Shown here one piece after another: positions 24,153 through 30,470 of a stretch of 64,000 bases of DNA. The stretch spans positions 434,001 through 498,000 of the forward strand of contig NZ_CP101137.1 in the NCBI RefSeq assembly GCF_028473745.1. Direction: 5' to 3'. This stretch comes from Streptomyces sp. M92 (lineage in GTDB: Bacteria > Actinomycetota > Actinomycetes > Streptomycetales > Streptomycetaceae). Position 1 is the first letter of the stretch, and every line of letters begins with the position of its first letter. The notes under the pieces are model-generated. The model was not told the origin of the DNA and made no database searches. It saw nothing but the letters and a program-made list of their open reading frames with translations. Both the position numbers and the translations under genes were made by a program.

Positions 24153-25556
24153 GTGCTTGAGCCCGCGTACCAGGCGGACGTCGTCGTCGTGGGGGCCGGG
24201 ATCGCCGGACTCGCCGCGGCGCATCGGCTGACCAGCGCAGGAGTGACGACCACGGTCCTGGAGGCCGCCCATGCGGTGGGCGGCAGGATGGCCACGGAGA
24301 AGGTCGACGGCTTCCGGCTCGACAGAATCGGGCAGTTGCTGCCGACGGCGTGCCCCGAACTGCGGCTCACCCCCGGGCTGGACGGCCTCGCGCTGCTGCC
24401 CTTCGCCCCCGGGGTGCTGCTGCACAGCGAGGGCCGCCACCACCGGGCGGGCGTCCCGGCGGGGGCCCGGGGCGCAAGGGGCGCACTCCACGCCGTGCGC
24501 GCCCTGGCAAGCGCCCCCCGCTCGGTTCCCGCGCCCCGGCGCCCGGTATCCGCGGTCCGCACTCCGGGGAGGCCCGCCCCCGTTTCCCGCGCCCGCGCGG
24601 GCGCCCCGCTCGGCACGGCCGTCGACCAGGCCCGCCTCGGTGCGGCGCTGACCCGCCTGGCCGCCACCCCCCTCGAACGGCTGCTGGCCCGTCCCGAGCT
24701 GTCCGCGGCCCAGGCCCTGGCGGTCCGCGGACTGCCGCCCCGCACGATCGACGGTTTCCTGCGCCCGCTGCTCGCCGCCCTGCTGTCCGACCCGGACCTG
24801 ACCACCTCCAGCCGGTGCGCCGACCTCGTGCTGCGGCAGTTCGCGGGCGGGCGCCTGGGGCTGCCCGAGGGCGGCTCGGAGGCGCTCCCGGAGCTGCTGG
24901 CGCGGCGGCTGCCGCCGGGCACCGTGCGCACCGGGGTCCGGGTCACCTCGGTGGCCACCAACGCCGTCGCCACCGCCGAGCACGGTGTCATCCGCTGCCG
25001 GGCCGTCCTGGTGGCGACCGACGCCCGGGCGGCGGCCGAGCTGCTGCCGGGCCTGAGGGTGCCGGACTTCCACCCGGTGACAGTGGTGCACCACACCACC
25101 GACGAGCCGCCGGCGACCGGCACCGCCCTGCTGCTCGACGCGGACCGCGGTGGTCCGGTCGCCCACACGGCGGTGGTCAGCCATGTGGACCCGTCCCGCG
25201 CACCGGCCGGACGGACCCTGGTCTCATCGACGGTCCTCGGCCCCCGCCCGCCCGACGTCGACACCGCCGTACGCATCCACCTGTCCCGCCTCTACGGCAC
25301 CCCGACCACCCGCTGGGAGACCCTCGCCGTGCACCACACGCCCGACGCGGTGCCCGCGATGCGCCCGCCGCACGACCCGCGCAGGCCGGTACGGCTGCTG
25401 GCCGGCCTGTACGTGTGCGGCGACCACCGCGACACCAGTGGCGTCCAGGGCGCCCTGCACTCGGGCCACCGGGCCTCGGCGGCGATCCTGACGGACTTGG
25501 GGGCGGGGCGGCCGATGCACTCGGCGGAGGCGGCGGGGACCGTGCGGGCAGCGTGA
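24153..25556 (+). CDS. FAD-dependent amine-oxidase-type oxidoreductase
   Basis: A 467-residue flavoprotein; GTG at 24153 follows GAGGAGGGG. The dinucleotide motif VVVVGAGIAGLAAAHRLTSAGVTTTVLEAAHAVGGRM is at the N-terminus, and the C-terminal FAD contact YVCGDHRDTSGVQGALHSGHRAS is complete. The central region has an Arg/Pro-rich insert at about residues 105-150. It resembles phytoene desaturase/protoporphyrinogen-oxidase-like enzymes; the substrate cannot be told. A 223-bp gap with no recognised features precedes it. Confidence 0.83.
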   Translation: MLEPAYQADVVVVGAGIAGLAAAHRLTSAGVTTTVLEAAHAVGGRMATEKVDGFRLDRIGQLLPTACPELRLTPGLDGLALLPFAPGVLLHSEGRHHRAGVPAGARGARGALHAVRALASAPRSVPAPRRPVSAVRTPGRPAPVSRARAGAPLGTAVDQARLGAALTRLAATPLERLLARPELSAAQALAVRGLPPRTIDGFLRPLLAALLSDPDLTTSSRCADLVLRQFAGGRLGLPEGGSEALPELLARRLPPGTVRTGVRVTSVATNAVATAEHGVIRCRAVLVATDARAAAELLPGLRVPDFHPVTVVHHTTDEPPATGTALLLDADRGGPVAHTAVVSHVDPSRAPAGRTLVSSTVLGPRPPDVDTAVRIHLSRLYGTPTTRWETLAVHHTPDAVPAMRPPHDPRRPVRLLAGLYVCGDHRDTSGVQGALHSGHRASAAILTDLGAGRPMHSAEAAGTVRAA

Positions 25557-26001
25557 CGCGAAGTGGAGGGTGCCGTCCCGATCGGACGACACCCTCCGCG
25601 GACCGGTGGGAAGAGCGCCCGTCAGCACCCACCCAGGTGCAGCCCGCTGACGAAGCGTGACATCCAGCACGCAAGAGCTATTCCGTGTTATTTCACTGTG
25701 AATAGCACGTCACCCTCACATCACCATCGACGGAGTCGGCCACCGAAGCTGGCAACGAGTGCACCTCGAATGGTTGTTTGATACTCTTTCCTCCGATTGC
25801 CAGGGGGGCATCAAAGACAGTGCATGACTACTGACGCGCTGGAGGGGCAGTCGCCGCCATGAATTCACTCTCATGCGCTCGGCCATCCCCAATACCTCTG
25901 CACCCTCCGGATGCCTTCCCAGCTTGAATTGACCTGTGCTTCCGCTGTCGGACATCGCAGACGACAGAAGCCATTCACATGTAATCACCGGAGGAAGTGC
26001 G
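25557..26001. other. locally AT-richer upstream region of the secreted-protein pair
   Basis: 445 bases without a credible gene. From about 25675 the base composition is visibly less GC-rich than the surroundings (GTGTTATTTCACTGTGAATAG; GGTTGTTTGATACTCTTTCC). An 11-bp palindrome TTCAC-T-GTGAA lies at 25692-25702. TTGTTTGATACTC at about 25773-25785 looks promoter-like. A good ribosome site (GGAGGAAG) precedes the ATG at 26002. Confidence 0.55.
25692..25702. promoter_or_regulatory. 11-bp palindrome TTCACTGTGAA
   Basis: A perfect palindrome with a one-base centre, in an AT-rich setting between the FAD oxidoreductase gene and the secreted-protein pair, about 300 bases before the pair. It is a candidate regulator site; which gene it serves is unknown. 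Confidence 0.3.
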
Positions 26002-26511
26002 ATGCTCTCCCGTACCCGAAAAATTGCCGCGTCTGCCTTCGCAGCGACTGTAGCGGTCGCTGGTTTTGCGACCATGGCTTCGGCAGACAGCGGAACCGTG
26101 CCACGCGCAGCCGCTGAGGAAATGCCGTCTGCGGTGGAATACTTCAATTATCCCGGCGCGGACAGGATCCTGGCCGAGGAGGGCATCGAGCTGAAGCGCG
26201 GGGACGGCCGTATTGTGCTGGCCGAGTGCGGCCAGACCTCCGACCAGATCAGAATTTACACCGTCGCGGACCAGGCCGTCGGCCGTAAGGGAACCTACTG
26301 TTTCCGAGCCACGGCGAATTCTGGCTACCTCACCCTGGAGCTGCCTCGCGTCTTCGGCCTCGAGACCAGTACGCAACCCATAAGTGCGGACCTGACGGCG
26401 GAGGGTCGGACTCAAACCGTCGACATGGCCGAGGACACGTACAAGAGTGTGGGTGAAGGAACCGTCGGCGGTGCTCACTCGGTCCTCGTCGAGATCCGGG
26501 TCACGGGCTGA
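26002..26511 (+). CDS. small secreted protein of unknown function, coupled to the pseudoprotease gene
   Basis: A 169-residue protein starting at ATG 26002 with GGAGGAAG 6 bases before. A Sec signal peptide (MLSRTRKIAASAFAATVAVA...ASA-DS) is predicted to be cut near residue 29. The mature part has two Cys (LAECGQTSD and GTYCFRATAN), a likely disulfide, and beta-rich sequence ending SVLVEIRVTG. I recognise no family. Its stop overlaps the start of the next gene (TGATG), so the two are coupled and probably work together outside the cell. Confidence 0.8.
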   Translation: MLSRTRKIAASAFAATVAVAGFATMASADSGTVPRAAAEEMPSAVEYFNYPGADRILAEEGIELKRGDGRIVLAECGQTSDQIRIYTVADQAVGRKGTYCFRATANSGYLTLELPRVFGLETSTQPISADLTAEGRTQTVDMAEDTYKSVGEGTVGGAHSVLVEIRVTG

Positions 26512-28676
26512 TGTCGATCACCGCCGTGTCCGGCACAACAGATGGGAACAGAGCCCGCATCGGGTTCTCACCGCGCTTCCACGCCGCGTTGGCCACGGGC
26601 CTGATGGCCACCGGCCTGACCGCCGGGTGTCTCACCGCCGGCACCGCCCAGGCCGCCACCGGGCCGGCCAGCTCGTCCAACGCCTACAACTTCACCGCGC
26701 GCCTGCAGATAGGCGACGACCAGCGAGGCTGCTCCGCGGTGCTGATAGCCCCGCAGTGGCTCGCCACCGCCGCGAGCTGCTTCGCCGACGACCTCGGCGC
26801 CGGCCCGGTCGCGGCGGGCGCGCCGAAGTGGAAGACCACGGCCGTCCTCGGCCCCGCCCCGGGCACCAACAAGCCCGTCGACGTCGTCGAACTCGTGCCG
26901 CGTACCGACCGGGACATGGTGCTGGCCCGGCTCGCCACACCCGCCACCGGCATCGCTCCCGCCCCCCTCGCCACCACCGCGCCCGTCGCGGGCGAGGAGC
27001 TGACGGTCGTCGGGTTCGGCCGGACCAGGGACGAATGGGCGCCGCTCGCTCGGCACACGGCCGCCTTCACGGTCCAGTCGGTCTCCGGCACCACCCTCGC
27101 GCTCGACGGCAAGACCGACGACGACGCCATCTGCGCCGGCGACGCCGGCGGCCCCCTGGTGCGGCAGAAGGACGGCAAGTTCGAACTGGTCGCGCTCGCC
27201 AGCCAGTCCTGGCAGGGCGGCTGCTTCGGCTCCGACCCGGCCGAGACCCGCAACGAGGCCGTCTCCCCGCGCCTGGACAACATCAACGGCGGCAACACCC
27301 TCATCCCCGGCTCCGTGATGCGGGCCGGTGACAGCCTCGTCTCCAACGCCGCCCGTCTGACCCTGCGGGCCGACGGCGACCTCGTCGTCGTCTCGGGCGC
27401 GGGCAAGACGCTGTGGTCGACCGGCACCGCGGGCCACCCCGGCGCCACCGCCCGCTTCACCGGCACCGGAAACCTCACCGTCGTCGACGCCGACGGCAGC
27501 ACCGTGCTGTGGGAGTCGAAGACCACCGCCGCCGGCGGCAAGGCCGTTCTCCAGGACCGCGGCAACTTCGTCGTCCACGACGCCCAGGGCGCCTCCCAGT
27601 GGGCCGCCGGCACCGTCGTCCGCCACGACTACGACGGCGACGGCCGCAGCGACCTCGCCGACTGGTACGACTACGGCGACGGCCACGACGAGATCCACGC
27701 CTTCCCCGCCAAGGCGGACGGCGGCTTCGAGAGCCCCGTGCACGGCTGGGAGACCGCGGCCGGCAACTACTGGGCCGAGAACATGAAGCGCTTCACCGGC
27801 GACTTCGACGGCGACGGCCTCGGCGACGTCGCCGCCTTCTACGGCTACGGCAACGGCGACGTCGGCCTGATCACCTGGCTCGGCCGGGGCGGCGGCCACT
27901 TCGACGGGCCGCTGCACTCGTGGAAGGACACCGACGGCTGGAACTTCGACCGCATGACCGTCAACTCCGGTGACTTCGACGGCGACGGCCGCGACGACGT
28001 CGCCGTCTGGTACGACTACGCCGACGGCAGCGACAAGCTCCACACCTTCCTCGCCAAGGCCGACGGCGGCTTCGACAGCCCCTTCTCGTCCTTCACCCGG
28101 ACCGAGGGCTGGACGGCCTCCAGCATGAAGTTCGCCACCGGCGACTACAACGGCGACGGCCGCGACGACCTCGCCGCGCTCTACGGCTACTCCACCGGCG
28201 AGGTCAAGATCATCACCTTCCCGACCACGCCCGACGGCGGCTTCGACAACACGGCCGTCCACGGCTGGAGCAGCACCGGCTGGAACTTCGACGCCGCCAG
28301 TGTCCACTCCGGCGACTTCGACGGCGACGGCCGCGACGACCTGGCCGCCTGGTACGACTACGGCGACGGCCACGACGCCGTGATCGGCTTCACCGCCGAC
28401 GCCGCCGGCAAGTTCGGCAACCGCACCGAGCTGTGGAACACCGCGGCCGGGAACTACACACGCGACCAGATGAAGATCGTCACCGGTGACTACGACGGTG
28501 ACGGCCGCGACGACCTCGCCACCTTCTACGGCTACTCGGACGGCGGGGTGAAGACCATCACCTGGACCGCCAAGGCCGACGGCACTCTCAACTCCCCGCT
28601 GCACAGCTGGGAGGCCAGGAGCGGCTGGACCTTCGACCGCCTGCACGCGATCGAGCGCTACCACAACCCCGCCTGA
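26511..28676 (+). CDS. secreted trypsin-fold pseudoprotease with lectin-like domain and six FG-GAP repeats
   Basis: A 721-residue protein with a long signal region (to about residue 50). Residues 55-265 are a chymotrypsin-fold domain: CSAVLIAPQWLATAASCF has Ser89 where catalytic His belongs, and CAGDAGGPLV has Ala212 where the Ser belongs, while Asp135 (DRDMVLARL) remains. Catalysis should be lost. Residues about 270-365 resemble a bulb-type lectin, three repeats such as LTLRADGDLVVV. Residues 368-715 hold six FG-GAP repeats with the calcium motif DxDGDGxxD. WYDY-type and FYGY/LYGY-type repeats alternate. The gene is coupled to the preceding small secreted protein. Confidence 0.88.
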   Translation: MSITAVSGTTDGNRARIGFSPRFHAALATGLMATGLTAGCLTAGTAQAATGPASSSNAYNFTARLQIGDDQRGCSAVLIAPQWLATAASCFADDLGAGPVAAGAPKWKTTAVLGPAPGTNKPVDVVELVPRTDRDMVLARLATPATGIAPAPLATTAPVAGEELTVVGFGRTRDEWAPLARHTAAFTVQSVSGTTLALDGKTDDDAICAGDAGGPLVRQKDGKFELVALASQSWQGGCFGSDPAETRNEAVSPRLDNINGGNTLIPGSVMRAGDSLVSNAARLTLRADGDLVVVSGAGKTLWSTGTAGHPGATARFTGTGNLTVVDADGSTVLWESKTTAAGGKAVLQDRGNFVVHDAQGASQWAAGTVVRHDYDGDGRSDLADWYDYGDGHDEIHAFPAKADGGFESPVHGWETAAGNYWAENMKRFTGDFDGDGLGDVAAFYGYGNGDVGLITWLGRGGGHFDGPLHSWKDTDGWNFDRMTVNSGDFDGDGRDDVAVWYDYADGSDKLHTFLAKADGGFDSPFSSFTRTEGWTASSMKFATGDYNGDGRDDLAALYGYSTGEVKIITFPTTPDGGFDNTAVHGWSSTGWNFDAASVHSGDFDGDGRDDLAAWYDYGDGHDAVIGFTADAAGKFGNRTELWNTAAGNYTRDQMKIVTGDYDGDGRDDLATFYGYSDGGVKTITWTAKADGTLNSPLHSWEARSGWTFDRLHAIERYHNPA

Positions 28677-28769: not shown

Positions 28770-30236
28770 TCACCCGAGCGCCGCGACCTTGTCGCGGTAC
28801 CCACGCACCGGCGCCGCGTCCCTGTACGGCTCCAGCCGCCGTTCGAAGTCGCGGACGTACTCCGCCGCCCGGGCCGACCTCATCTCGGCCGCCTGTCCGG
28901 CCGCCTCGGCGGCCAGCTGGCAGGCCTGGTCGAGTTCGCCGAGGCCCAGGCGGGCGGTGGCGAGGACGATCCGGCAGAAGAGCCTGCTGCGCGCGTACAC
29001 GGGGGCGCGCAGCAGCAGCGAGCGTTCGGCGTACTGGGCGGCGGCCCGGAACTGCTGGAGGTCGCGGTGGCAGTGCCCGAACTCGTCGGCGAGCTGCGCC
29101 TCGTCGAAGAAGCGGGCCCAGTGCGGCACCTCGTCGCCGGGCCGGGCGGCCTCCAGGGCGCGCTCGGCGCGGACCAGCGAGGCGGTGCAGGCCCGCACCT
29201 CGCCGAGGACGCCGTGCGCCCGCGCCTCGGCCGCGTGCAGCAGCGTCTGCACGACCGGCGGCGCTGAGGTCCCGACCCCCTGCTGCGCCACCCGCGCGAG
29301 CTGCACGGCCTCGCGCCCGTGCCCCAGGTAGACGGCCTGCCGGCTCATGGTGACCAGCACGTACGAGCCGTACGCCCGGTCCCCGGCCGCCTGCGCGAGC
29401 CGCAGCGCCTGCACGAAGTAGCGCTGGGCGAGGCCGTGCGCGGCGATGTCGTACGACGTCCAGCCCGCGAGCCGGGTGAGGTCGGCGGCGGCGGCGAACA
29501 GCCGGCGGCCGGTCTGCTCGCCGTAGGTGCCGCGCAGCATCGGCTCCAGCTCGTGCTCCAGGTAGCGCACGAGGGCCTGGCGGGCGTGCCCGCCGCCGTA
29601 CCGGTCGTCCAGGCTGCGGAACAGCTCGCCGACCGAGCGCAGCGCGGCGAGGTCGCCGCCGGTGACCTTCTGGCCGGGGCCGCGGTCGGCGGACGGCGCG
29701 CGCCGGCGGGCCGGGTCGACCGGCACGGGCCCCCTGGGCATCGCGGGGCGGCCCTGCGCGGGGATGCGGACGGGCACCTCGGCGCGGGCCACCTTCTCGT
29801 CGGCCCGCCCGATCAGCCAGTCCCGGCTGGGCACGACCAGTCCGGCCGGCGTGAAGGCGATCTTGCGCAGCTCGGCCTGGCTGCCGGAGTCCTTGCGCCA
29901 CAGCCCGCCGACGATGTCGACGGCCTCCTCCGGGGTGGCGGCGAACTCCAGGCCCGCGTAGACGGGCGCGCAGGCGTCGAGGCCGAGGTCCTGCGCGCTG
30001 AGGCGGCGGCCGAGGCGCCGGGTGAAGACCTCGGCGATCAGCGCCGGGGTGGTGCCGCGGGGCTGCTGGCCGCGCAGCCACCGGGTGACGGACGTCTTGT
30101 CGTATCTCAGGTCCAGACCGTGTTCGAGTCCGAGCTGGTCGACGCGACGCGCGAGACCCGCGTTCGAGAACCCCGCTTCGGCGATGAGCGCGGCGAGCTG
30201 GCGGTTGGGGGTGCGCTGCGCGGGTCGTTCCGTCAT
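28770..30236 (-). CDS. HTH regulator with C-terminal TPR-like helices
   Basis: A 488-residue protein. ATG at 30236 follows AGGAG by 8 bases. The N-terminal helix-turn-helix is in [51 protein letters not shown] (about residues 10-65). The rest is all-helical and rich in Ala and Leu, with TPR-like pairs from about residue 240 ([43 protein letters not shown]). This architecture is common among Streptomyces regulators of development and antibiotics, such as the NsdA type, but no specific orthologue is claimed. It diverges from lipB with a 234-bp gap. Confidence 0.85.
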
Positions 30237-30470
30237 GGTGCGGTGCGGTCTCCTGCCTTCCGGGCGTTCGATGTGCCCGGAGCGCCTGTGAGCAGCCCTT
30301 ATGGCCTCGTGAACGGCGCGAATGTAGCGGAGAGTAAGCGCCCGATCGCACACTTTCACCGGCATTCATCCGATCGTGTGAGGATTGCCCGCCCGGCTGA
30401 CGACGCGTGGGCGGTCGTACAGTGGCGTGGGCACGCTTCGTGCCTTACGACCTTCCGGGGAGGCATTGCC

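What the first reader, a model, noticed from the sequence alone, without database searches (positions are those of the whole stretch)
26511..28676. Secreted serine-protease fold with both catalytic His and Ser replaced, fused to lectin-like and FG-GAP repeats
The chymotrypsin-like domain keeps its structural motifs but has ATAASCF where TAAHC is expected (Ser89 for His) and GDAGGP where GDSGGP is expected (Ala212 for Ser); Asp135 stays. The rest of the domain is not degenerate and the gene is full length, so this looks like a maintained pseudoenzyme rather than decay. Fusion to a bulb-lectin-like part and a six-repeat FG-GAP propeller suggests binding to glycans or proteins.
Basis: partly seen in the sequence, partly recalled or inferred. 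Interest (0 to 1): 0.8.

Follow-up and report, generated by a model that had tools for sequence, protein, structure and literature searches.

The report
Umbrella-toxin lectin spoke, toxin gene missing
The dead protease described here is a known kind of protein: UmbA4, a lectin arm of the 'umbrella' toxin particles with which Streptomyces attack each other. The unusual point is that this copy sits at a locus that kept its adaptor and lectin genes but lacks the toxin gene found there in its closest relatives.

Summary
ORF 26511-28676 (721 aa) has Ser89 for the catalytic His, Asp135 kept and Ala212 for the catalytic Ser, followed by a bulb-lectin domain and six FG-GAP repeats. It is not a new pseudoenzyme. 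It is a UmbA4-type protein of Streptomyces umbrella toxin particles (PDB 9oee, E 4e-263; 8w20). In that published family the trypsin fold is a catalytically dead clamp that holds the adaptor UmbB, and the lectin end chooses the target. None of 40 UmbA trypsin domains keeps the Ser and one keeps the His. The gene just upstream (26002-26511) is umbB.

What I add: (1) In three syntenic relatives an umbC toxin gene lies beside umbB; here it is missing, while umbB and umbA are intact. (2) The propeller is only 46% identical to the S. coelicolor-type UmbA4, against 80-87% for the other two domains, and two of three tested glycan contacts are changed, so another target glycan is likely. (3) The NCBI model for 'fusidic acid esterase FusH' recognises a UmbA5-like protein that also lacks the triad, an unresolved contradiction.

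The parts
26511..28676 (+). umbA (UmbA4 type), 721 aa: signal peptide about 1-48, trypsin-like domain about 49-260, bulb lectin about 261-368, six-repeat FG-GAP propeller about 369-718
   Evidence: the mature end matches the first residue of the 9oee chain (ATGPA)
26655..27290 (+). trypsin-like UmbB-docking domain (residues 49-260) with Ser89, Asp135, Ala212 and the predicted UmbB-contact Arg171
   Evidence: R171 invariant in 14 of 14 UmbA4-type proteins
27291..27614 (+). bulb-lectin domain (residues 261-368)
   Evidence: (B_lectin, 1.8e-9)
27615..28673 (+). six-repeat FG-GAP propeller (residues 369-721); positions equal to the S. coelicolor glycan contacts are I568, N648 and I683
26002..26511 (+). 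umbB adaptor, 169 aa, signal peptide by eye, docking motif AVEY (usual AVED); its stop codon overlaps the umbA start by one base
   Evidence: (8w20_B, E 8.3e-26)
25557..26001 (.). short interval where syntenic relatives carry umbC; no umbC detected; 25759-25814 resembles the L024 umbC-umbB intergenic stretch
24153..25556 (+). left flank: FAD-dependent amine oxidoreductase family gene, neighbour of the right-flank gene in genomes without the island
28770..30365 (-). right flank: NsdA-family TPR-like regulator

Best explanation
ORF 26511-28676 encodes a UmbA4-type spoke protein of umbrella toxin particles. It is secreted. Its trypsin fold does not cut: the old substrate cleft holds the extended N-terminus of the adaptor UmbB, encoded just upstream, with Arg171 pairing with the Glu of the UmbB motif. 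The bulb lectin and six-bladed propeller stick outward and bind a cell-surface glycopolymer of a competing Streptomyces. Because umbC is missing at this locus, I infer that the UmbA4-UmbB arm docks onto UmbC rings made elsewhere in the genome, at least the one with a single 1381-aa frame at about 4.88 Mb, and adds one more target specificity. Shown here: sequence, architecture, residue conservation, neighbouring umbB, missing umbC, changed glycan contacts. Shown by others for relatives: UmbB binding, no protease activity, glycan-dependent targeting. Inferred: docking onto rings from other loci, and the new target.
For: PDB sequence and fold matches to UmbA4 (9oee) and UmbA1 (8w20). Upstream umbB matches 8w20_B. 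Ser lost in 40 of 40 UmbA trypsin domains. Arg171, equal to UmbA1 Arg156 (counted by hand on the alignment), invariant in 14 of 14. Published mechanism (PMC11062931, passages; PMC13274773). Pairwise dN/dS below 1: umbA versus L022 0.31/0.38/0.45 by domain; umbB versus L024 0.153/0.624, about 0.24. Four umbC places elsewhere in the genome, one with a single 1381-aa frame.
Against: No experiment on this protein. The UmbB motif is AVEY, not AVED (20 of 23 UmbB rows read E-D at those positions). Constraint on umbA is looser than on the flanking genes (window versus L022: about 0.22 and 0.07 for the flanks), though pairs that both keep umbC are equally loose (L022-L023 0.44/0.59/0.63). Of the four umbC places, two read as frame-split and one is short, so the supply of rings may be limited. 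Orphan UmbA proteins in S. coelicolor use UmbB1-3 from complete loci; I found no tested precedent for a dedicated umbB without umbC.
Confidence: 0.88

Rival explanations
1. Stand-alone agglutinin: without umbC the UmbA4-UmbB pair acts by itself, cross-linking or masking surface glycan on competitors or on the producer's own surface.
For: No umbC at the locus; umbB and umbA both intact. PMC13274773 (section 12) reports that UmbA4-UmbB purified from a strain without UmbC formed long helical filaments with target glycan in vitro. Orphan umbB-umbA pairs recur: the window, G077:C55 and G060:C3 among 52 UmbB loci, G060 lying in a genome with no UmbC ring match at E 1e-10.
Against: The window genome still has umbC genes, so docking remains possible; no activity of a free pair is known to me; the filament was an in vitro observation. 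The ring model missed one short umbC known, so absence in G060 is not proven.
Confidence: 0.15
2. Decaying remnant: umbC was lost and umbB-umbA are leftovers not yet broken.
For: umbC missing; AVEY change in the docking motif; other umbC genes in the genome look damaged; umbA less constrained than its flanking genes.
Against: Both frames are full length and dN/dS is under 1. Pairwise values average over time before and after the loss, so a recent loss is not excluded.
Confidence: 0.15
3. The fold keeps a hidden hydrolase activity, as reported for FusH, through another residue or site.
For: The NCBIfam FusH model (cut-off 999) scores 1195.8 bits on a UmbA5-like protein lacking His and Ser, yet FusH was reported as a fusidic acid esterase (passages in PMC4476819, PMC12493156, PMC10644348).
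Against: UmbA1 and UmbA5 trypsin domains had no protease activity; no single conserved replacement at the Ser position: Ala in 12 of 40 and Thr in 28 of 40; the window protein scores only 188.9 on the FusH model.
Confidence: 0.05
4. Sequencing error or chance loss in a single gene.
For: None found.
Against: Same residues in L022 (93% identical best segment) and the same pattern across 40 domains.
Confidence: 0.01

Closest known systems
UmbA4 of Streptomyces coelicolor (PDB 9oee; PMC13274773)
   Same: Same three domains in the same order, same triad loss; trypsin 79.5% and bulb lectin 87.0% identical to the near-S. coelicolor copy L074.
   Different: Propeller only 45.7% identical; Y551 and W668 equivalents are Ile, N633 kept; a umbB lies directly upstream, whereas no umbB or umbC was found in the 18 kb fetched around the L074 copy.
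UmbA1 of the Umb1 particle (PDB 8w20/8w22; PMC11062931)
   Same: Trypsin-like UmbB-docking domain with the conserved Arg (R156 there, R171 here); triad incomplete in all S. coelicolor UmbA proteins.
   Different: UmbA1 has one lectin domain, no bulb lectin, and is encoded near its own umbC.
FusH, 'fusidic acid esterase' (NCBIfam NF000157)
   Same: Same family by sequence; the best match reads TATSCFA and GDTGGP, so also without the triad.
   Different: No bulb lectin seen, different propeller; reported as an esterase (seen only through citing papers).
Other trypsin-family (S1) matches of the same genome
   Same: Pfam Trypsin domain.
   Different: Nine of 14 print G[D/N]SGGP, five unscored; this protein reads GDAGGP.

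Membership tests
UmbA (umbrella toxin spoke protein) | Secreted, N-terminal trypsin-like domain without the catalytic triad | tested here: met
   signal peptide judged by eye, cleavage matches the first residue of 9oee
UmbA (umbrella toxin spoke protein) | Conserved Arg that salt-bridges with the UmbB motif | tested here: met
   R171 in GFGRTRDEW equals UmbA1 R156 (counted); invariant in 14 of 14
UmbA (umbrella toxin spoke protein) | C-terminal lectin domain(s) | tested here: met
   bulb lectin and FG-GAP propeller; fold match to 9oee; sugar binding itself not tested
UmbA (umbrella toxin spoke protein) | Binds UmbB and is incorporated into particles | not testable with these tools
   umbB is adjacent; binding is inferred
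UmbA4 with S. griseus-type glycan specificity | Glycan contacts Y551, N633, W668 | tested here: not met
   I568, N648, I683: one of three kept
Complete umb locus (umbA-umbB-umbC) | umbC with ALF repeats within about ten genes of umbB | tested here: not met
   No UmbC match at E 1e-3 in the window for 8 UmbC queries; no ALF hit in C1:434001-498000
Active S1 serine protease | His-Asp-Ser triad | tested here: not met
   Ser89, Asp135, Ala212
FusH fusidic acid esterase | NCBIfam equivalog score above 999 bits | tested here: not met
   188.9 bits

The most novel reading that the evidence does not exclude
A disarmed umbrella locus: a complete umbC-umbB-umbA4 cassette entered at the oxidoreductase/NsdA-family site, then lost its toxin gene while the adaptor and lectin stayed under selection. 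UmbA4-UmbB would then be a free-standing module, either a lectin arm shared by rings from other loci or a toxin-free agglutinin that cross-links a glycan different from the one bound by S. coelicolor UmbA4.
Probability: 0.3. Interest if true: 0.55.

Novelty: new member of a known kind. Interest (0 to 1): 0.38.

Why it matters
The headline is already explained: it is a published protein family whose dead trypsin domain serves as a clamp. What remains useful is narrow but testable. The locus is a natural umbC-less case, so adaptor and lectin can be studied without the toxin gene beside them. The domain-by-domain contrast with UmbA4 predicts a changed target. The FusH/UmbA5 overlap asks whether an antibiotic-inactivating 'esterase' was misassigned or whether a triad-less UmbA protein can hydrolyse.

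Tried and rejected
Considered and rejected: decay of an ordinary protease (relatives share the changes); sequencing error (same residues in L022); FusH orthology of the window gene (188.9 bits against a 999 cut-off).

Considered a programmed frameshift in umbC because two own-genome umbC genes (L061, L062) change frame in the first coiled coil. The breaks lie at different places and a third case (L036) is an assembly gap of N, so I do not claim it.

dN/dS above 1 for the propeller against L074 (1.46) is not claimed as positive selection: synonymous values are similar across domains (0.37, 0.28, 0.37), probably saturated in this GC-rich genome, and domain exchange explains the low identity (L070 has a propeller 84.6% identical to L074 but a trypsin domain only 51.0% identical).

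Led nowhere: the search of the PDB with the N-terminal 1002 aa of the L027 protein; the paper search for FusH by name, which returned unrelated words.

Full report
Observation. The ORF at 26511-28676 (+) encodes 721 aa. Ser89, Asp135 and Ala212 stand at the trypsin triad positions. Pfam finds a Trypsin domain, a bulb lectin (B_lectin) and FG-GAP repeats. I count six repeat motifs by eye.

Identity. The whole mature protein matches PDB 9oee (E 3.8e-263); 8w20 chain C matches at 4.6e-63, mainly over the trypsin part. Both chains are labelled 'Secreted esterase' there. Foldseek on an AlphaFold2 model (mean pLDDT 79.8, pTM 0.69, 14-row alignment) gives the entry titles: 'S. griseus TUA bound UmbA4 complexes' and 'Umb1 umbrella toxin particle'. 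The TM-score to 9oee is modest (0.49 by query length, rmsd 19.8), which I put down to domain placement in the model. The gene upstream, 26002-26511, matches 8w20 chain B (8.3e-26), the UmbB of that particle by size and by its AVED-type motif (my assignment; the chain is labelled only 'Secreted protein'). It has a Shine-Dalgarno-like GGAGG before its ATG, and its TGA overlaps the umbA ATG by one base.

Known mechanism. From PMC11062931 (abstract, sections 5 and 10, and passages): UmbC is a ring of ALF repeats with a stalk and toxin, UmbB proteins sit on the ring, and UmbA proteins attach through a trypsin-like domain whose cleft holds the UmbB N-terminus. No S. coelicolor UmbA has the full triad, and UmbA1 and UmbA5 trypsin domains had no protease activity. 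From PMC13274773 (abstract, sections 12 and 13, and passages): UmbA4 has trypsin, bulb lectin and propeller domains, binds a teichuronic-acid-like polymer of S. griseus, and contacts at Y551, N633 and W668 matter for toxicity.

Conservation. I aligned 40 UmbA trypsin domains from own-genome and relative loci. Loci with the propeller but no trypsin domain (L027-L033, L035, L071, L078, L079) and a 217-aa ORF in L065 were left out. Triplets (His/Asp/Ser positions): S/D/T 25, S/D/A 9, A/D/T 3, A/D/A 1, H/D/A 1, N/N/A 1. Rows include paralogues from one genome, so they are not independent. Later UmbA proteins seen show the same kind of motifs but were not added to the count. In the same genome, 7 of 7 UmbA proteins read GD[A/T]GGP, and 9 of 14 other trypsin-family matches read G[D/N]SGGP, 5 unscored.

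Missing toxin gene. The locus is syntenic with L022 (Streptomyces sp. CB02414), L023 (WAC 04229) and L024 (A108) on both sides. In those three, an umbC (1178, 1332 and 1241 aa open frames, 8 ALF repeats each by Pfam) runs divergently from umbB. In the window there are only 445 bp between the left gene and umbB, and 8 UmbC queries find nothing at E 1e-3 in the whole window. One 56-base stretch (25759-25814) resembles the umbC-umbB intergenic region of L024 (78.6%). The island measures about 3.2 kb here against 7.0-7.4 kb there (gene ends). In 19 of 19 further genomes, which I picked from the 28 best other matches to the right-flank gene among 392 genomes, the left and right genes lie next to each other with no umb gene detected; the gap is up to about 1.3 kb (L123), and in L112 the left gene reads in two frames. 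The simplest order is insertion of a full cassette, then loss of umbC; partial acquisition is not excluded. The window umbB is 76% identical to that of L024 but 45-47% to those of L023 and L022, so umbB itself seems to have been exchanged among these loci.

Selection. Pairwise dN/dS of umbA against L022, L023 and L024 lies between 0.31 and 0.56 over the three domains; umbB against L024 is about 0.24. The flanking genes are tighter (window versus L022 about 0.22 and 0.07). Pairs that both keep umbC are as loose as the window (L022-L023 0.44/0.59/0.63), so looseness is not specific to the umbC-less copy.

How unusual. In 81 Streptomyces genomes I found 52 UmbB loci (53 rows, two pieces merged). 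By script, 47 of 52 have an ALF-ring match within 10 kb; one of these, G000 at 901.7 kb, counts only because I added an ALF place, so the ring model alone gives 46. The other five: the window; G077:C55 (umbB-umbA with 8.8 kb of upstream sequence and no ring or ALF hit); G060:C3 (umbB-umbA, no ring match in that genome); G078:C22 (umbB alone, no ring match in that genome); and G014:C281 (800 bp from the contig end, undecidable). So orphan umbB-umbA pairs look uncommon but recur. In the two umbrella papers 'UmbB alone' gave no hit, and in the Cell paper 'without umbC' gave none and 'lacking umbC' one, a laboratory deletion strain. The supplements could not be read, so I do not claim that such pairs are undescribed.

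Specificity. Against L074, a near-S. coelicolor UmbA4 (an assignment inferred from its near identity to 9oee), identity is 79.5% in the trypsin domain, 87.0% in the bulb lectin and 45.7% in the propeller. Using the only start among those scanned in L074 that places Y551, N633 and W668 on the right residues, the window has I568, N648 and I683. L070 keeps all three and its propeller is 84.6% identical to L074, although its trypsin domain is only 51.0% identical. This fits exchange of propellers between UmbA proteins and predicts a different glycan for the window protein. The general idea of lectin diversification is already published (PMC13274773).

Rest of the system in this genome. Matches: 7 UmbA, 4 UmbB and 4 umbC places. 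The umbC at about 4.88 Mb has one 1381-aa frame; those at 1.32 and 4.15 Mb are split between two frames; the one at 0.90 Mb is short. The split genes may be real or assembly errors.

FusH. The NCBIfam equivalog for fusidic acid esterase FusH scores 1195.8 bits on a protein in G278. That protein reads TATSCFA and GDTGGP. With a 520-aa start, the length of the model, its GFGR arginine is residue 166, the number the text of PMC11062931 gives for UmbA5; the mutant in its extended data is written R176E, so the numbering there is not uniform. FusH and UmbA5 therefore appear to be the same protein type; I did not have the FusH or UmbA5 reference sequence itself. FusH is cited as an esterase that acts on fusidic acid (passages in PMC4476819, PMC12493156 and PMC10644348). 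The 1997 source was not available. The main texts of the umbrella papers do not use the word esterase, the Cell paper does not mention fusidic acid or FusH, and no held paper has both 'umbrella toxin' and 'fusidic'. How a triad-less protein would be an esterase is open.

Verdict. Ordinary in kind, a UmbA4-type spoke protein; mildly unusual in its toxin-less locus and diverged, probably exchanged, propeller.

Noticed in passing
L135 9210-10853 (G278 C1:1776209-1777768); own genome about 924 kb and 1095 kb: The NCBIfam FusH 'fusidic acid esterase' model recognises UmbA5-like proteins without the catalytic triad (1195.8 bits; own copies 968.3 and 995.6, just under the cut-off of 999).
   Followed up: partly
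L061 7722-8276 and L062 8053-8668 (own genome about 1.32 and 4.15 Mb): Two of the genome's umbC genes change reading frame in the first coiled coil, at different places; real frameshift or assembly error not decided.
   Followed up: partly
own genome about 1.32 Mb (L061): A umbC place with no umbB or umbA found in the 16 kb fetched around it, the mirror image of the window locus.
   Followed up: partly
L027 5094-9551 and similar ORFs in L028-L033: Large open frames (1461-1577 aa) with a UmbA4-like propeller but no trypsin domain found; L027, the only one scanned, also has a C-terminal bulb lectin and its N-terminal part has no PDB match at E 0.1.
   Followed up: partly
L071 7900-10530: Bulb lectin and the same kind of propeller followed by a weak match to a glycerophosphodiester phosphodiesterase domain (GDPD, E 1e-4), without a trypsin domain found.
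   Followed up: no
L159 8335-9033 (G078): A UmbB-like protein with a long Ser/Ala/Pro-rich stretch, with no umbA found at the locus and no UmbC ring match in the genome.
   Followed up: no
L065 6215-7612 (G090): Two consecutive UmbB-like ORFs in one umb locus; the second has a divergent motif (SVKD) and also matches the UmbA trypsin query (1e-14).
   Followed up: no
window 26131-26142 (within umbB): The UmbB docking motif reads AVEY, where 20 of 23 UmbB rows have E-D at the last two positions.
   Followed up: partly
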